Position numbers and translations under genes: made by a program
Notes under the pieces: model-generated
Seen by the model: the letters and a program-made list of their open reading frames with translations, nothing else
Databases searched by the model: none
What the model was told of the DNA's origin: nothing
Assembly: GCA_022447625.1 (NCBI GenBank)
Contig: JAKVAX010000011.1
Span: 1 to 64,000, forward strand
Source: Flavobacteriales bacterium
Lineage (GTDB): Bacteria > Bacteroidota > Bacteroidia > Flavobacteriales_D > Sanyastnellaceae
Length of the DNA: 64,000 bases
Direction: 5' to 3'
In this document: positions 54,020 through 60,610 of the stretch, one piece after another
Numbering within the stretch: the first letter of the stretch is position 1
Layout: every line of letters starts with the position of its first letter

Positions 54020-55309
54020 TTATTCAATCAGCACACGCGTCACCTGAGTTCCTGATTGAATCAAGTAAACACCGCTAGCCAAATCTGACAGATCCAATTG
54101 TTGAATTGGACTCATCGTTTGCAACTGTTGAATCACTTTACCACTGGCGTGGAAAATGGAAATCTGTGTTCCGATTGGAGATTCAATATTCAATACACCG
54201 GTGCTTGGATTTGGCCAAATAGCGAATTCCGCGTTAGCGAAATCAGACACTGTAATACTCACAGCACAATCTGGAGCATCACTTGCAGCTCCGCCTAAGA
54301 CGCCTGCTTCAGCCCAACCATTGAACCATTCTCCACCAGAGAAGTCAGTCCAGTTATTCAAGTTCATGTATTGATCACCGTCGAATGTTGCATTGATACG
54401 GTAAACCTTCATGGCTTCGTTGTTGTCATTCCAGGTCAACGGTTGGCCTGCTTCACAAACCTCAGGTCCAATAGGTCCATCACAATTCGGGCGAAGGAAA
54501 TACACGTAATCGTCGTACTCAGGGGCTTCACCATAGCACCAAGCAATTCCGGCATCATCGATGCATACTGCGGCATACTCGTCACAAGCAATTCCTTTCG
54601 GGTATACGCCATAATCTTGGTACATGCGGGCTAGGAATGTCGTGTGACGCCCCGCGCGATCTGGGTCATCATAGTGGGTATCTGTAATTGTGTTTTCCAT
54701 AAAAGGAGCCTCGATAAAATCGTTGAATCCAATGGTCATGTATTGATTGTATGGGTCCTCTAAGGCTTCATCGCTGTATACTGTCCCATTTTCTGCAGTG
54801 AAGTATGCATCACCCATGATAGCCATTCCTGCTGAGATACCGCCTACTACTCCTCCGCGAACGTTGAGCAAGTTGTTGATGGCGTCTTCTATGGCTGTTC
54901 CGCGCCAGTAGGATATGTAATCCCACTGATTACCTCCGGCCATCCAGATCGCCTCGGCATGTTGGACTTGCTCGATTACGTATGGATCCTCAGCTGCAGA
55001 GGCATCGTTAAATAGGATGGTCTCTACTGAGTTAATCGTTACACCAAGGTCAGAGAAAAAGTAGTCGTTGTATCCATCTGAACCGCTCGCGCGAAGAACT
55101 ACCACCTCTCCGCCATTGGCTCGCTCAAGGAACCATTTCATGGCCTCATCGTTCTCTCCTGCACCGCCCATTAGGACGACACCAAAGTTGGGTTCAACAT
55201 CTAAATCTGCTTCATCACCTGTGAAGAAGCTCTCGTATGATTGTGCCTGCATCGCTCCTGAAAGAAGCAACGCAAACATCCATGTGAAAAGTGATTTCGT
55301 ATTCATCAT
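54020..55309 (-). CDS. S51 (cyanophycinase-like) peptidase with T9SS type A sorting domain
   Basis: The 429-residue product has a signal peptide (about 1-22, ending MQAQ). The S51 domain (about 40-275) has VVLMGGAG, MAGGNQWDYI, the nucleophile in GGISAGM (Ser159), a histidine in ITDTHYDDPDRAGR (His212) and an acid in GIACDEYAAV (Glu244). The set mirrors that of the partner gene but is more diverged. The C-terminal 65 residues (WPNPSTGVLNIES, ASGVYLIQSG) form a T9SS sorting domain, so it is exported to the surface or medium. Its ATG overlaps the TGA of the upstream S51 gene (ATGA), so the two are coupled. Likely acts on Asp-containing peptides or cyanophycin. Confidence 0.82.
   Translation of the reverse strand: MMNTKSLFTWMFALLLSGAMQAQSYESFFTGDEADLDVEPNFGVVLMGGAGENDEAMKWFLERANGGEVVVLRASGSDGYNDYFFSDLGVTINSVETILFNDASAAEDPYVIEQVQHAEAIWMAGGNQWDYISYWRGTAIEDAINNLLNVRGGVVGGISAGMAIMGDAYFTAENGTVYSDEALEDPYNQYMTIGFNDFIEAPFMENTITDTHYDDPDRAGRHTTFLARMYQDYGVYPKGIACDEYAAVCIDDAGIAWCYGEAPEYDDYVYFLRPNCDGPIGPEVCEAGQPLTWNDNNEAMKVYRINATFDGDQYMNLNNWTDFSGGEWFNGWAEAGVLGGAASDAPDCAVSITVSDFANAEFAIWPNPSTGVLNIESPIGTQISIFHASGKVIQQLQTMSPIQQLDLSDLASGVYLIQSGTQVTRVLIE
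54227..54241 (+). repeat. Dispersed 15-mer, in the T9SS-S51 gene
   Basis: TTCCGCGTTAGCGAA, perfect match; encodes F-A-N-A-E on the gene strand. Confidence 0.75.
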
Positions 55310-56184
55310 TTTGCGGTCATCACCGTTATTTCGACTTCTGACATTTCGAGAAGTCCGTTTTCATTGGCCGAGCTTTCTCCTGGTGAAAATAACACCACTT
55401 GTCCAGCGCCGGCCACGCTAAATCCATTATTTGATACCACTAGGGCCGTAGACTCCCCTATTCCAAACACAGGCGTATTTGGGTGATCGTGCATCGCGGT
55501 CAGTGCACGATTATATCTGCTGCGCTCAACGAAGTGTTGATCGATGATCGCATGCTGTAGAAGGCCGAGACCTTCTGAATAGATTCCATTGTTCGCCTTC
55601 AAACGTCGGTAAGTAGACTCATATTCAGGCTCGAGTTGCTGATCGCCGGTGATCATGACTTCACTCATGACCGCTGCACCCGCGCTCGTACCCGCAATGA
55701 CACAACCGTTCTTGAAAGCCTGATGTAGGTCTTCTTTCAGATTCCTCTTTTCCACAACCTCCATGAATCGATTTTGGTCACCTCCACAAATGTAGATCAA
55801 GGAAGCATGAGGGAGTCCGCTTTTGAGACCTTCACTCTGCTCCAAACCAAAGAAGAAGCTTTCTACTTGTGTGCATCCGAGCTCTGTAAATTGCTTGGTC
55901 GCGTAGAATGCCGAAGTATCGGGTTCACTACTCGCTGAAGGGATAATGACAATCAGACTGTCTTTCGACGGCATGAGGTCAATCATCTCTTGCACCAAAG
56001 ACGGAGGTCGTTTTCCTCCACCGATGATAAATAGGCTCCCCTTCGCTTCCGGATCGACGAGCTGGAGGCTTTCGATCGAAAATGCTTGATCATCCTTCAC
56101 CTCATCGCTCACCACCGCAGGCGGTTCCGATTCCGCGCAAGCGAAAAGGAAAAAGAGCGAAAAACACATTAGAAACTGTTTCAT
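55306..56184 (-). CDS. Cyanophycinase-like S51 peptidase, lipoprotein
   Basis: The 292-residue product has a lipobox ending FLFAC (Cys16) followed by AESE, an acidic pattern of surface-exposed Bacteroidota lipoproteins. The S51 domain (about 48-270) carries IIGGGKRP, YICGGDQNRF, the nucleophile elbow GTSAGA with Ser167, His217 in IDQHFVERSRYNR, and Glu244 in GIGESTALVV. All members of the family triad are therefore present. Cyanophycinase cuts the Asp-Arg polymer cyanophycin to beta-Asp-Arg; related peptidase E cuts Asp-x dipeptides. The position directly after susC and susD suggests degradation at the cell surface coupled to uptake. Confidence 0.88.
   Translation of the reverse strand: MKQFLMCFSLFFLFACAESEPPAVVSDEVKDDQAFSIESLQLVDPEAKGSLFIIGGGKRPPSLVQEMIDLMPSKDSLIVIIPSASSEPDTSAFYATKQFTELGCTQVESFFFGLEQSEGLKSGLPHASLIYICGGDQNRFMEVVEKRNLKEDLHQAFKNGCVIAGTSAGAAVMSEVMITGDQQLEPEYESTYRRLKANNGIYSEGLGLLQHAIIDQHFVERSRYNRALTAMHDHPNTPVFGIGESTALVVSNNGFSVAGAGQVVLFSPGESSANENGLLEMSEVEITVMTAK
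56131..56145 (+). repeat. Dispersed 15-mer variant, in the lipobox of the S51 gene
   Basis: TTCCGCGCAAGCGAA, one mismatch; encodes F-A-C-A-E, including the lipid-bearing Cys. Confidence 0.65.
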
Positions 56185-56207
56185 AACTATAGTCTCTAGC
56201 CTAGCGC

Positions 56208-57557
56208 CTAATCAACATCCCACCAAACCGGCTCCTGCATGTTTGGAATCGGACTTGGGACGTTCGGGTTCAACAATCGTTCATTCTGCGGGTAGATCAA
56301 ACGCAATGGAAACTCGCCACTCGGGTTCGACGCACTCACTCCATTCTCATTCGGATCAAGTTGCGGATACCCCGTTCTGCGGTAATCAACCCATGGCTCA
56401 GTTTGCGTGAAGAGGGCAATGTACTTCTGCTCAATGAGCAACTCCAAATCACTTTCAAAGTCTCCGGAAAAGCTAAATTCACTGACAAATTCATCAATCT
56501 CTTCTTGCGTCAAGGTGCCGAAGGTGTTGTCTTCAACAGATGCTCTGATGGCGTCTTGCATACTCGCTAGCGCGGAACCGGATTGGTTGTCGCGAAGCAA
56601 GCACTCTGCCTCAATGAACTTCTGCTCAATGTAAGATACGATCTTCACTGGCGAGTCTGGTGACGCCAAGGCCTCTCCCACTTTGCTCTCACCTCCCGTA
56701 AATGGGATGATGTCAATGAAGAAATCGAAACGTGGGTCTTGAATACCCATGATTCCGATGAACTCAATATCGATCACTGCATTCGGCGTAATCTCATAGT
56801 ACTGGAAGATCGGGTTCGCATCGACATCCGTTCCGAGGTAACCGTATTGAAGGTCTTCGAAACTAGAGTTGAAACCATTCTGCGCGGCCAACAAAGCCTC
56901 ATTCACCTTCGTAGGATCCACATTGCTCTGGTGCAACAGATAGCGCGCCTTCAAGGCATACGCAGATTGAATCCAACGCGCGAGATTCCCTTGGTACATG
57001 ATATCATCATTCGCCGGAGAGAATACGCTTTCAGAAGCCTGCAAATCTTCAATAGCCTCATCTAGTAATTGATCAATCTGTTCGTAGACAAACGCTTGTG
57101 AGTCATAGATTGGCTGGACGTTATTCGCGTTAAGGGCTTCACTCAAAGGGGCATCTCCCCAAATGTCAGTGACAACTCCAATATTTGCTGCCATCAAGAC
57201 CTTTCCAACACCGGCGTAATGTGGTGCGCTTTGTTCGTTGGCTTTATCGATCATAAACCGAAGGTTGATCATCGAGCCAGCGTAAAAGTCATCCCACAAA
57301 TACCCAACGAAGAGCTCGTCTGGATTGTAATTCTCGGTATTCAGTTCCTGGTTATTCACCCCTTCGAGGTGCTGAGAAAAGATGTTGGTATAACGGAAAG
57401 CTCTTCCTCCTAAAGCCTCAGCCAAGTTGAATTGTGCAGAGGGTAATAGTGTCTCCAACGGCACATCATCTGGCACGTTAGGATTCTCATTGATCTCCTC
57501 CAACTTACACGCTGAGAAGACCATCATCACTGTGAATAGGTAGATTAAATTCTTCAT
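56208..57557 (-). CDS. SusD/RagB-like surface lipoprotein
   Basis: The 449-residue product has a lipobox ending VFSAC (Cys17) followed by KLEEINENPN, the typical start of SusD-like proteins. The body is helical with TPR-like stretches (VLMAANIGVVTDIWGDAPLSEAL, YALKARYLLHQSNVD) and ends with the usual YPQNERLLNPNVP and WWDVD. SusD proteins close over the SusC barrel and bind the substrate. The gene starts five bases after the SusC stop and is followed by the S51 gene. A heptamer-like CTATAGT/CTCTAGC/CTAGCGC stretch lies in the 23-base gap. Confidence 0.93.
   Translation of the reverse strand: MKNLIYLFTVMMVFSACKLEEINENPNVPDDVPLETLLPSAQFNLAEALGGRAFRYTNIFSQHLEGVNNQELNTENYNPDELFVGYLWDDFYAGSMINLRFMIDKANEQSAPHYAGVGKVLMAANIGVVTDIWGDAPLSEALNANNVQPIYDSQAFVYEQIDQLLDEAIEDLQASESVFSPANDDIMYQGNLARWIQSAYALKARYLLHQSNVDPTKVNEALLAAQNGFNSSFEDLQYGYLGTDVDANPIFQYYEITPNAVIDIEFIGIMGIQDPRFDFFIDIIPFTGGESKVGEALASPDSPVKIVSYIEQKFIEAECLLRDNQSGSALASMQDAIRASVEDNTFGTLTQEEIDEFVSEFSFSGDFESDLELLIEQKYIALFTQTEPWVDYRRTGYPQLDPNENGVSASNPSGEFPLRLIYPQNERLLNPNVPSPIPNMQEPVWWDVD
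56563..56577 (-). repeat. Dispersed 15-mer, in susD (opposite orientation)
   Basis: Plus-strand CTCGCTAGCGCGGAA, one mismatch; here the gene strand reads S-A-L-A-S, the alternative phase. Confidence 0.65.
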
Positions 57558-57562
57558 TGCTT

Positions 57563-60500
57563 TTAGAATGTAAGTGAGAGTTGAACTCCGTAACTACGTG
57601 TGTTCGGTGAATTGAAATAATCACGACCGAAGCTGTTTGCCGCTCCAGAAAGCGATGTCTCTGGGTCGATTCCACTGTAGTTCGTGATCAAGAATAAGTT
57701 TCGAGTGATAATGCCTACGGAAGCACCTTTGATCTTCAGTCGTTCACTCATCTCTTGAGGCATGGTCCAAGTGATTCCTAAGTCACGAAGACGAAGCCAG
57801 TTCACCTCTTCGATTCCTTCTTCACTCACGCCAACCAAACCGTAGCGGGTGTAGTAAGACTGATCAAGAGGAACAGCGATAGCATTCGCCTCTCCAGTAT
57901 TCACATTCACACCTTCGATCACCACTTCCTCGCCGCGATTCTCTGTATCAATGTGGGTTCCGTGGAAACGCATCACGTTGGCCGTTCCATTATACATATC
58001 GCCTCCTACGCGGATGTCGAAAAGGAAACTGAGCGACCACTGTCGCCATCCCAATGTGTTTCTCCAACCCGCTGTGAAGTCAGGGTTAGGATCTCCAATG
58101 ATTTGGCGTTCACTGTCAACAATTGGGTATCCTTCATCATTGATCAAGACATTACCATTCGCATCCCTCGCCCAGGCTGTGCCCATGAGAACTCCATATG
58201 GTTGTCCTGATACAACTGTAGACTGCGTACTCGCCAAACCAAAGCTCGGAAGAGGAAGCTCATCCAATCCATCAATGATCGACACCACTTCATTTCGTAG
58301 TCTGTTGAAGTTGATGCTCGTTTGCCAATCCAGCTGATTTGCTGTTTTCGCCTCAACTACTGATGCATTTAATAGGAGTTCCAGACCTGTGTTTCGAATG
58401 GGGCCTGTTCCATTCAAGACTGCCGTTGTGTAGCCTGAACTTGAAGGAATGAAGCTAATGATGATCGGATCCGTTGTCTCGCTTCGGTACCAAGTCACAT
58501 CCAGTCCGAGACGATTCTCGTAGAAGCGAAGGTCTGTTCCAAACTCAATGGTTTCCGTTGTTTCCGGACGTAAATCTGGGTTTCCGATGACACTGTTCGG
58601 TTCATAGGCCAAGTTCCCTTGTACGGGTGCTGCCGCTTCGAAGAAATTCGAGGTGAGGTAAGGACTTGGAGCCCCATTTCCAACGCTCGCGTGGCTTGCT
58701 CTGAGTTTACCGTAGCTGAATGCTTTCGAATCAATATCAAAGGCGTCCGTAAAGATGAACCCGAGGTTCACCGACGGATAGAAGAAACTGTTGTTGTCAG
58801 CTGGAAGATTGGAGAGCCAATCGTTCCGGCCGGTGAGGCCTAAGAAAAGGAACCCTTTGTAACCAACATTCGCGTCAACATATGCACCCACACCACGCTG
58901 ACGACTCAAGAAATCATCGGCAATCACGTTAATGATATCGACGTTGGAGATGTCGTAGAAATCGGGAATGATGAACCCAACTCCATCAAGTTCCACATCT
59001 GTAGTTTCGTAGTTGAAGTAGTTATGTCCAGCGGTAGCTGAGAACTCCCAATCTTCCCCAAAGTACTTTGAGTACAGGATGAAAAAGTCATTATTCAAGT
59101 TCCGCTGCACGGTGGAAGCATTGTAGATACGTCCGCCTAGGTCACGATACTCTGCCGAGCGCGCGTCCCAATATGCTTTTACCCGCTGATCGTAGAAATC
59201 TGTACTGATACGATTGACGATGCTCAGGTTCTCTGTCAGTTCAAGACGAGATTCAAAGCTAGCGATGACACGTTCAACATCTTCTCGGTTGGCGTTCTTG
59301 TTGACACTCCAATACGGGTTGTCATAAACGCTGTGGTAAGTACGCTGGGTTCCATCTGGATTCGAGTAGGCCAAGGGCTCATCTACTGGGTCTTCAAAAC
59401 CATTTGTCATATCGAAATCGGCCGGGGCACGCATCAAACCAAGCATCACCCCACTGAGGTTTGAACCGCGTTGACCGCGATCAGAACCAGAACGGATGTA
59501 GTTGATATTGGTCTGGACGAAGAGCTTTTCCTTCCAGTTCGTCTTACCTGTTAATCGCAGGTTCGTTCGTTCGTAGCGCGTATTCGGAATGATACCACGT
59601 TGCTGGCTATTTCCGATGGAAACAAGGAAGCTCGAGCGCTTATTTCCTCCTTCGAAACTGAGGTAGTTATTGGCTGTGATTCCTGTTTGGAAGAAGTTTG
59701 GTGCATGCTCGAATGACTCACCTGAGATGGCTGGTCCCCATGAGAACCGAGTGCCTTCCACGAATTCATCGAATTCTCCTTGTCCGAACGCCAACTGCGC
59801 TTCAGGGAGCTTATTCACCTGATCAAAGATCACCGTCGATTTGAAGTTAATCTTAGTCTCTTCTCCTCCGCTTTTGGTGGTGATGATCACCGCTCCATTC
59901 CCAGCTCTTACCCCGTAAAGTGCCGATGCTGGTCCACCTTTCAACACGGTGATACTCTCAATATCATCAGGATTGATATCAATTGCACGGTTTGATTGAT
60001 CAGTGAAGTTGGAACCGCGGTAGCTATCATCTACCGGAACGCCATCAATGACGTACAACGGTGCATTGCTGCCTGAGATCGATTTGTTACCACGAATTCG
60101 CACGGTGGTGCTGGCTCCTGGTGAACCTGAAGAAGAGGTGACGCTTACACCGGCTACTTTCGAGTTGAGTGAGTTCATCACATTGATCTCGCCAGAGCGT
60201 TGAAGTTCTTCTTCTTTTACTTCGGTCACTGCGTAACCGACTTTACGTTTGTCTTTTTTGATACCAATCGCTGTCACCACTGCCTCTTCGAGGAGGAGTT
60301 GCTCAGGAGTCAATGCCACGTGAATTGTGTTCGATTCCGCGATAGCGACTTCTTTAGAAGTATAACCAATGAACGAGAAGACGAGCTTACCGCTCTTAAA
60401 CTGCTCATCGGTCACTTCAATTTGATAGCTTCCATCCAGGTCAGTGAAGGCACCTTTGTTTTCGCCTTTGATCACCACCGTTACTGCTAGTAGTCCTTCA

Positions 60501-60610
60501 TTGGTCTCACTATCAGTCACTTTACCCGAAATGGTTTGTTGCGCTAACGCGGAATACGACCCGGCCAGCAACAACGCTCCCATAAGGAAGAAAGTATGTA
60601 AGGATTTCAT
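57563..60610 (-). CDS. SusC/RagA-like TonB-linked outer-membrane transporter
   Basis: The 1015-residue product has a signal peptide (about 1-23), a CarboxypepD-regulatory-like domain (about 26-105), a TonB-box region, a plug domain with the SusC hallmark PLYVIDGVPVDD (184-195), and a 22-strand barrel to the C-terminal Phe. It imports oligomers with SusD and TonB energy. Nothing in the barrel identifies the substrate; the two S51 peptidases downstream point to an Asp-rich peptide or cyanophycin-like polymer rather than a glycan. No sigma/anti-sigma pair or glycoside hydrolase is nearby. The long leader upstream may carry regulation. Confidence 0.95.
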   Translation of the reverse strand: MKSLHTFFLMGALLLAGSYSALAQQTISGKVTDSETNEGLLAVTVVIKGENKGAFTDLDGSYQIEVTDEQFKSGKLVFSFIGYTSKEVAIAESNTIHVALTPEQLLLEEAVVTAIGIKKDKRKVGYAVTEVKEEELQRSGEINVMNSLNSKVAGVSVTSSSGSPGASTTVRIRGNKSISGSNAPLYVIDGVPVDDSYRGSNFTDQSNRAIDINPDDIESITVLKGGPASALYGVRAGNGAVIITTKSGGEETKINFKSTVIFDQVNKLPEAQLAFGQGEFDEFVEGTRFSWGPAISGESFEHAPNFFQTGITANNYLSFEGGNKRSSFLVSIGNSQQRGIIPNTRYERTNLRLTGKTNWKEKLFVQTNINYIRSGSDRGQRGSNLSGVMLGLMRAPADFDMTNGFEDPVDEPLAYSNPDGTQRTYHSVYDNPYWSVNKNANREDVERVIASFESRLELTENLSIVNRISTDFYDQRVKAYWDARSAEYRDLGGRIYNASTVQRNLNNDFFILYSKYFGEDWEFSATAGHNYFNYETTDVELDGVGFIIPDFYDISNVDIINVIADDFLSRQRGVGAYVDANVGYKGFLFLGLTGRNDWLSNLPADNNSFFYPSVNLGFIFTDAFDIDSKAFSYGKLRASHASVGNGAPSPYLTSNFFEAAAPVQGNLAYEPNSVIGNPDLRPETTETIEFGTDLRFYENRLGLDVTWYRSETTDPIIISFIPSSSGYTTAVLNGTGPIRNTGLELLLNASVVEAKTANQLDWQTSINFNRLRNEVVSIIDGLDELPLPSFGLASTQSTVVSGQPYGVLMGTAWARDANGNVLINDEGYPIVDSERQIIGDPNPDFTAGWRNTLGWRQWSLSFLFDIRVGGDMYNGTANVMRFHGTHIDTENRGEEVVIEGVNVNTGEANAIAVPLDQSYYTRYGLVGVSEEGIEEVNWLRLRDLGITWTMPQEMSERLKIKGASVGIITRNLFLITNYSGIDPETSLSGAANSFGRDYFNSPNTRSYGVQLSLTF
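60335..60349 (+). repeat. Dispersed 15-mer, in susC
   Basis: TTCCGCGATAGCGAC, one mismatch; encodes V-A-I-A-E on the gene strand. Confidence 0.7.
60540..60554 (-). repeat. Dispersed 15-mer, in the susC signal peptide (opposite orientation)
   Basis: Plus-strand TGCGCTAACGCGGAA, one mismatch; the gene strand reads S-A-L-A-Q around the cleavage site. Confidence 0.65.

What the first reader, a model, noticed from the sequence alone, without database searches (positions are those of the whole stretch)
54020..60610. SusC-SusD operon with two S51 peptidases: a candidate uptake locus for cyanophycin or Asp-rich peptides
Seen: four minus-strand genes in a row with gaps of 5 and 23 bases and a 4-base overlap: SusC, SusD, a lipoprotein S51 peptidase with Ser167/His217/Glu244, and a second S51 protein with Ser159, His212, Glu244 and a T9SS tail. 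Known: SusC/SusD pairs import oligomers, mostly glycans, and S51 includes cyanophycinase and peptidase E. Inference: one enzyme is anchored at the cell surface and one is secreted by T9SS, so the polymer is cut outside and fragments enter through SusC. This is a polypeptide counterpart of a polysaccharide utilisation locus, and cyanobacterial cyanophycin would be a natural substrate in water.
Basis: partly seen in the sequence, partly recalled or inferred. Interest (0 to 1): 0.72.

Follow-up and report, generated by a model that had tools for sequence, protein, structure and literature searches.

The report
SusC–SusD operon for scavenging cyanophycin
A Bacteroidota bacterium carries a four-gene operon that looks built to cut up and import cyanophycin, the arginine-rich nitrogen store of cyanobacteria, using the kind of outer-membrane importer best known for sugars; related operons occur elsewhere in the phylum, but no activity has been tested.

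Summary
S51a scores above the curated cyanophycinase cut-off, has the catalytic triad residues and all six published pocket residues, and its model matches solved cyanophycinases best. S51b has the triad residues but Pro where cyanophycinase has Arg178. The linkage is conserved: the four close SusD relatives found by a genome-collection scan adjoin S51 genes, against 0 of 25 distant ones. In other class members S51a sits in runs with SusC/SusD, often with isoaspartyl aminopeptidase (the next pathway enzyme), a DcuC-type carrier or arginine-catabolism genes. The three held genomes of the genus have only one or two SusC genes over the cut-off and no cyanophycin synthetase. Most exported S51a enzymes, though, lie without SusC/SusD. 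The kind is not new: a Bacteroidetes "cyanophycin utilization locus" was described in 2017 (paper not held), and a TonB receptor near cyanophycinase in 2012. This is a SusC/SusD, double-S51 variant.

The parts
57563..60610 (-). SusC/RagA-family TonB-dependent transporter, 1015 aa; closest solved relative BT_2264 (of a peptide-binding SusCD)
   Evidence: TIGR04056 583.8 bits over cut-off 368.25; PDB 5fq6_B E 2e-101, next 8aa4 7.6e-57
56208..57557 (-). SusD-like lipoprotein lid, 449 aa
   Evidence: PF12771 SusD-like_2 197.7 bits; the only PF12771 match in this genome, and likewise one each in G047 and G048
55306..56184 (-). S51a: lipoprotein cyanophycinase, 292 aa (lipobox Cys16; Ser167, His217, Glu244; pocket Gln137, Asp215, Gln216, Arg221, Arg223, Arg226)
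   Evidence: TIGR02069 144.7 bits over cut-off 126.6; residues; lipobox by simple pattern; best fold matches are cyanophycinases
54020..55309 (-). S51b: secreted S51 protein, 429 aa (Ser159, His212, Glu244; Pro216 in place of Arg178), type A T9SS tail near residues 363-428
   Evidence: PF03575 37.9 bits, PF18962 41.8 bits; TIGR02069 49.7 bits, below cut-off; residues

Best explanation
A cyanophycin-scavenging (uptake and degradation) operon. Proposed route: extracellular cyanophycin from lysed cyanobacteria or other producers is bound and trimmed at the surface by the T9SS-secreted S51b and perhaps by the lipoprotein S51a; short chains or beta-Asp-Arg units are imported through SusC/SusD; S51a, on the surface or in the periplasm, removes beta-Asp-Arg dipeptides; these cross the inner membrane (in some relatives a DcuC-type carrier is encoded next door) and a cytoplasmic isoaspartyl aminopeptidase (in this genome at G000:C3:84222-85169, about 24 kb beyond the SusC end and outside the window) releases Asp and Arg. 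Shown here: gene content, operon layout, conserved residues, linkage conserved across genera and in other families, co-location of dipeptidase, carrier and arginine-catabolism genes in relatives, and no synthetase over cut-off in three genomes of the genus. Inferred: substrate, direction of transport, location of S51a, role of S51b.
For: S51a passes the cyanophycinase equivalog cut-off. It has all six residues that a paper calls critical for cyanophycinase activity (passage of PMC3235067); across 75 S51a rows only position 173 of the nine checked varies. Its model (pLDDT 70.8, pTM 0.74) matches cyanophycinases 7uqv/3en0/7uqw at E 1.5e-16 to 2.2e-15, peptidase E at 1.4e-11 or weaker. Linkage: 4 of 4 close SusD relatives (46-77% identity) adjoin S51 genes, 0 of 25 distant ones do; two further families of the order (L239, L240) have SusC-SusD-S51a-S51b-DcuC. 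In the phylum 9 of the 20 regions of the first, higher-scoring batch have SusC, SusD and S51a in one run, 6 of these 9 with IaaA or DcuC in it; L256 continues into arginine-deiminase and DDAH family genes. CphA over cut-off: 0 of 3 genus genomes, against 4 of 4 other family genomes, these four picked because one search showed an ~880-aa neighbour. Closest solved SusC is that of a peptide-binding pair (PMC7782687 passages).
Against: No activity or growth data. Most exported S51a enzymes seen are not in a SusC/SusD run: 16 of 56 distinct rows are. In the window's family 38 of 114 genomes match S51a at E <= 0.001 (some of these matches are S51b or CphB), and I found SusC-SusD-S51 in 4 of the 34 of these whose regions I read; G016 has S51a-S51b without SusC/SusD. 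The second batch of 20 phylum regions has 0 with SusC. 18 of 20 S51b regions in the order have no SusC at 100 bits or more. S51b has Pro at Arg178. L239 and L240 S51a score 120.8 and 116.6 bits, just under the cut-off. The window's operon itself holds no IaaA or DcuC. An exo-acting enzyme outside would give dipeptides, which hardly need a SusC/SusD pair. SusD's best solved match is not BT_2263.
Confidence: 0.72

Rival explanations
1. The operon imports and cuts isoaspartyl or Asp-rich peptides in general (damaged protein, poly-aspartate-like material), and cyanophycin is at most one of several substrates.
For: S51 also contains peptidase E and other Asp-specific enzymes (fold matches; PMC9239234 passages); an IaaA and an IadA from cyanophycin clusters proved promiscuous (PMC10206079 abstract and passages); S51b departs from the pocket.
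Against: S51a is over the cyanophycinase equivalog cut-off and far under that of PepE (40.8 against 156 bits); full cyanophycinase pocket; arginine-catabolism genes next to homologues.
Confidence: 0.17
2. The SusC/SusD pair imports an unrelated substrate (a glycan or ordinary oligopeptides) and the S51 genes merely share the transcript.
For: SusC/SusD pairs mostly serve glycans (general knowledge); most exported S51a and S51b genes seen live without SusC/SusD.
Against: SusC-SusD-S51 kept next to SusDs of 46-49% identity and in three families of the order; SusDs of other Pfam families (PF14322/PF07980 in L252 and L256, against PF12771 here) are also found with S51a; no glycoside hydrolase in the operon.
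Confidence: 0.08
3. The S51 proteins turn over the cell's own cyanophycin.
For: Relatives in the same family do carry CphA beside a CphB.
Against: No CphA over cut-off in 3 of 3 genomes of the genus; S51a has an export signal and S51b a T9SS tail, and the CphA-linked enzymes are in a separate signal-less group.
Confidence: 0.03

Closest known systems
Cyanophycin utilization locus of Bacteroidetes strain L21-Spi-D4 (Ben Hania et al. 2017, not held; known here only as described in passages of PMC10206079)
   Same: Cyanophycinase genes clustered with a transporter for scavenging outside cyanophycin, in a Bacteroidetes, with an isoaspartyl dipeptidase
   Different: That locus is said to have iadA and a transporter whose type I could not check. 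Here the transporter is a SusC/SusD pair, there is a T9SS-tailed second S51 protein, and the dipeptidase is IaaA, about 24 kb away in this genome and close by in L134, L136 and L240
TonB-dependent receptor near cyanophycinase in Citromicrobium sp. JLT1363 (PMC3400609, passages read)
   Same: TonB-dependent uptake of cyanophycin inferred from a nearby cyanophycinase gene
   Different: An alphaproteobacterium (recalled); the passages mention no SusD, second S51 protein or T9SS tail
Extracellular cyanophycinase CphE of Pseudomonas alcaligenes (PMC3235067, passages read, abstract in part)
   Same: Exported S51 enzyme with Ser-His-Glu triad and the conserved pocket
   Different: Sec signal peptide, Thr at position 173; S51a is a lipoprotein with Gln at 173. 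No operon is mentioned in the passages
BT_2263/BT_2264 and RagA/RagB peptide-binding SusCD pairs
   Same: BT_2264 is the closest solved relative of this SusC; oligopeptide ligands in the structures (PMC7782687 passages)
   Different: No S51 enzymes known to me beside them (recall, untested); ligands are ordinary oligopeptides

Membership tests
Cyanophycinase (TIGR02069, S51) | Score above the curated equivalog cut-off | tested here: met
   S51a 144.7 against 126.6 bits; S51b fails at 49.7
Cyanophycinase (TIGR02069, S51) | Ser-His-Glu triad and pocket residues Gln101, Asp172, Gln173, Arg178, Arg180, Arg183 | tested here: met
   By alignment: S51a has all (residue list from PMC3235067 passage). 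S51b does not meet it: Pro at 178, Thr at 173
Cyanophycinase (TIGR02069, S51) | Fold closer to cyanophycinase than to peptidase E | tested here: met
   S51a model. S51b not searched, model too poor
Cyanophycinase (TIGR02069, S51) | Hydrolysis of cyanophycin to beta-Asp-Arg | not testable with these tools
   Needs an enzyme assay
SusC/SusD import system | SusC-type TonB-dependent receptor next to a SusD lipoprotein | tested here: met
   TIGR04056 and TIGR04057 over cut-off, PF12771 over cut-off, gap 5 bases
T9SS cargo (S51b) | Signal peptide and C-terminal type A sorting domain | tested here: met
   Sorting domain over both curated cut-offs; hydrophobic N-terminus read by eye, no signal-peptide program run
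Cyanophycin utilization locus (as described in PMC10206079) | Cyanophycinase clustered with a transporter, no synthetase in the genome | tested here: met
   Operon; no CphA over cut-off in 3 of 3 genus genomes
Cyanophycin utilization locus (as described in PMC10206079) | Isoaspartyl dipeptidase clustered (within 5 kb, the paper's rule) | tested here: not met
   In this genome the nearest PF01112 gene is about 24 kb from the operon; iadA was not searched for. In the same run in L248, L251-L253, L255, L256; near SusC on the other strand in L134, L136, L240
Polysaccharide utilization locus | Glycan-active enzymes in the locus | tested here: not met
   No CAZyme-type family among the four operon genes or the five neighbours scanned

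The most novel reading that the evidence does not exclude
SusC/SusD machines have been recruited more than once in Bacteroidota as dedicated importers of a non-ribosomal polyamide, cyanophycin, together with a distinct exported class of cyanophycinase and a second T9SS-secreted S51 protein that binds, solubilises or endo-cuts the insoluble granules so that chains fit the SusC/SusD cavity; in the window's genus, with only one or two SusC genes per genome, this is the main or only use of the machine.
Probability: 0.45. Interest if true: 0.65.

Novelty: new variant of a known kind. Interest (0 to 1): 0.5.

Why it matters
SusC/SusD pairs are usually read as sugar importers. If this reading is right, a recognisable set of them takes up a nitrogen-storage polyamide, so Bacteroidota around cyanobacteria could recycle fixed nitrogen as well as glycan carbon, and annotating such loci as PULs would mislead. 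It also gives testable markers: export signal, Gln at 173 and a SusC/SusD, IaaA or DcuC neighbour for scavenging enzymes, against signal-less, Thr/Ser, CphA-linked enzymes for storage turnover. PMC10206079 (passage) says that the isoaspartyl dipeptidases of Bacteroidota cyanophycin clusters remain undiscovered; the IaaA-bearing loci here bear on scavengers rather than on that gap.

Tried and rejected
Rejected: own-cyanophycin turnover (no CphA over cut-off in three genomes of the genus). Rejected: chance neighbours. Led nowhere: the S51b model, from only three sequences (pLDDT 44.8), so no fold search was run with it. Rfam and tRNA scans of the window gave nothing. A plasmid search with S51a gave 25 records, all under 60% identity.

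Limits of the counts: the 40 S51a regions were picked mainly by score from the 94 matching genomes, not at random (G499 and much of the second batch out of order, several matches skipped); the 20 S51b regions were picked mostly from the top. My simple ORF caller found no S51 in L039, L053, L270 and L274; they count as misses. Seven S51-labelled frames were left out of the residue and tree sets for length or score: L054, L134 S51b, the second S51b-like frames of L248, L268, L269 and L273, and L267. Duplicates (L034 = L133, L119 = L135) were dropped from the tree but not from the residue counts. In the tree the signal-less group holds 15 CphA-linked rows plus L059, L280 and L281, which I put there for their Thr/Ser and lack of signal. 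L243-L247 and L254 have a SusC in the fetched region but not in the S51a run; I counted them as not linked. Contig ends cut L134 and L136, and the L239 contig stops before any IaaA. The SusD scan uses two peptide patterns and is not exhaustive: L239 and L240 were not among its hits. SusDs of other loci were called by phmmer; only L252 and L256 were checked in Pfam. The tree is a quick one, with long branches flagged.

Literature: searches. One search found two papers with cyanophycin, SusC and SusD; in the passages read (PMC11573002; PMC10100682) the topics are separate. Passages only were read of PMC3400609, PMC3235067, PMC12661447, PMC10206079 (with abstract), PMC9239234, PMC8880816, PMC12590107 and PMC7782687; all other papers were seen as listings. 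Ben Hania 2017, the PNAS paper on cyanophycin dipeptide hydrolases and one cyanophycinase structure paper were not held.
Full report
Observation. Family scans agree: SusC over the TIGR04056 cut-off, SusD over PF12771, two PF03575 (S51) proteins, and a type A T9SS sorting domain on the second. Tight spacing suggests one transcript (inference). The operon holds the only two PF03575 matches of the genome.

What the enzymes are. S51a scores 144.7 bits against the cyanophycinase equivalog (cut-off 126.6) and 40.8 against PepE (cut-off 156). Its nearest solved sequences are cyanophycinases (7uqv 1.3e-22, 3en0 7e-18). Its model (pLDDT 70.8, pTM 0.74, four-sequence alignment) matches 7uqv, 3en0 and 7uqw at 1.5e-16 to 2.2e-15, ahead of peptidase E at 1.4e-11 or weaker. 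7uqv is titled "pseudo-CphB" in that list; I could not read why. A paper lists Gln101, Asp172, Gln173, Arg178, Arg180 and Arg183 as critical around Ser132 (passage of PMC3235067), and another says that Arg178 is needed for substrate binding (passage of PMC12661447). In a joint alignment of 113 sequences S51a has all six plus Ser, His and Glu; over 75 S51a rows only position 173 of these nine varies. S51b rows keep Gln101, Ser132, His174, Arg180, Arg183 and Glu201 in 38 of 38 and Asp172 in 37 of 38, but Arg178 is Pro in 34 of 38, the window's included; the four with Arg are L238 and L251-L253.

Two classes of S51a-type enzyme. Rows with Gln at 173 number 57: none has CphA in the fetched region, and 56 have a hydrophobic N-terminus (the last, L271, probably has a misassigned start). 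Rows with Thr or Ser number 18: 15 have CphA in the region and none passes the hydropathy threshold. That threshold (1.6) is mine, set on these data; the nearest values on either side are 1.54 and 1.71, L271 apart, and no signal-peptide program was run. In the tree of 110 rows the 18 form one side of a branch with support 100, the S51b rows another. The window's S51a is of the exported class, with a lipobox at Cys16.

Linkage. A scan of genome contigs with a SusD profile gave 29 loci. The four close ones are L133 (Flavobacteriales M30B41), L134 (ALOHA_ZT_11), L135 (UBA4660) and L136 (Cryomorphaceae T3Sed10_241). All adjoin S51: L133 SusC-SusD-S51a-S51b; L134 the same with S51b cut by the contig end; L135 SusC-SusD-S51b; L136 SusC-SusD-S51a, cut by the contig end. 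None of the 25 distant SusD loci has an S51 gene at 60 bits or more (L147 has a 33-bit match in a 91-aa frame; some contigs end soon after SusD). In the order, 105 of 399 genomes match S51b at E <= 1e-30; of 20 regions fetched, L239 and L240, from two other families, have SusC-SusD-S51a-S51b-DcuC, and 18 have no SusC at 100 bits or more. In the phylum, 94 of 395 genomes match the S51a profile at E <= 1e-30. Of the 20 regions of the first batch, 9 have SusC, SusD and S51a in one same-strand run (L242, L248, L251, L252, L253, L255, L256, L257, L258), and 15 have a SusC somewhere in the region; of the 20 of the second batch, none has. In all, 16 of 56 distinct exported S51a rows sit in a SusC/SusD run and 0 of 18 signal-less ones. 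The label needs 9 changes on the tree, at least 6 forced by well supported branches, gains and losses not told apart.

Pathway context. Isoaspartyl aminopeptidase (IaaA, PF01112) is in the same run as S51a in L248, L250-L253, L255, L256 and L266, and near SusC on the other strand in L134, L136 and L240. The ~460-aa genes beside S51 in L239, L240, L256 and L260 are PF03606 (DcuC) carriers. L256 continues into arginine-deiminase (PF02274) and DDAH (PF19420) family genes; L243 lies beside an Lrp/AsnC regulator and a class III aminotransferase. In the window's genome a matching IaaA, with no signal by eye, lies at C3:84222-85169, next to a T9SS-tailed companion; proteins alike by eye sit between IaaA and SusC in L134, L136 and L240. 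A DcuC lies on another contig. So the set is present in the genome but split.

Genome context. CphA over cut-off in 0 of 3 genomes of the genus, and in 4 of 4 others of the family, the latter picked because they showed an ~880-aa neighbour. SusC over the curated cut-off: 2 in G000, 2 in G047, 1 in G048; PF12771: one each. In G048 the S51-linked SusC is the only one over cut-off. So this pair is not one of dozens.

Transporter. The closest solved SusC is BT_2264 (2e-101, next 7.6e-57), whose complex holds oligopeptide (PMC7782687 passages). SusD's best solved match is another protein, 5j5u; BT_2263 is further down (4.7e-19).

Mechanism. See the best explanation. Open points: exo-cyanophycinases give dipeptides (PMC10206079 passage), so an enzyme acting only outside would leave little for SusC/SusD; this favours periplasmic S51a, or S51b making or presenting short chains. 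A surface-export motif after Cys16 was not tested.

Against. Most exported S51a and nearly all S51b regions fetched lack SusC/SusD in the run. In the family 38 of 114 genomes match S51a at E <= 0.001 (some matches being S51b or CphB); of the 34 whose regions I read, 4 have SusC-SusD-S51. L239 and L240 S51a score just under the cyanophycinase cut-off. I found no wet evidence.

Known or new. PMC10206079 (abstract and passages) credits Ben Hania et al. 2017 with a "cyanophycin utilization locus" (cyanophycinase genes, iadA, transporter), found in Bacteroidetes strain L21-Spi-D4, and reports that 45 of 52 genomes with cyanophycinase and dipeptidase but no cphA1 have them clustered. PMC3400609 (passages) inferred TonB-dependent cyanophycin uptake in Citromicrobium. 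So the kind is known; the SusC/SusD pairing, the second T9SS-tailed S51 protein and the two-class pattern are what this adds, as far as searches show.

Noticed in passing
S51 rows: Residue 173 separates exported cyanophycinase-type enzymes (Gln, 57 rows, no CphA in the fetched region) from signal-less ones (Thr/Ser, 18 rows, 15 with CphA in the region) in the Bacteroidota sampled.
   Followed up: partly
G000:C3:84222-86059 (L128:4222-6059), outside the window: IaaA overlaps by one base a T9SS-tailed protein with a weak cleaved-adhesin match; proteins alike by eye stand between IaaA and SusC in L134, L136 and L240, so the companion may be a cyanophycin-binding surface protein.
   Followed up: partly
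window 54278-54484 (S51b residues about 276-344): A conserved stretch between the S51 domain and the T9SS tail (W and G motifs in alignment A2) has no Pfam or NCBIfam match; perhaps a binding module.
   Followed up: no
L222-L238, L241: S51b is found in 105 of 399 genomes searched in the order, once per genome in all but one (two fragments), and 18 of 20 regions read have no SusC, so it probably has a role of its own.
   Followed up: partly
L260, L264, L272, L275, L277: A second type of locus: S51a, a DcuC carrier and a protein of about 820 aa in one run; in L264 the latter is a TonB receptor, with an RpiR-type regulator and an M20-like peptidase nearby. Possibly closer to the published cyanophycin utilization locus.
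   Followed up: partly
L243-L247: S51a is followed by a protein of about 730 aa that matches the PvdQ acylase model weakly in L243, where an M28 peptidase and an Lrp/AsnC regulator precede it; a SusC lies a few kb away but in another run.
   Followed up: no
G000, G047, G048: The genus has only one or two SusC genes over the curated cut-off, few for Bacteroidota by general knowledge.
   Followed up: partly
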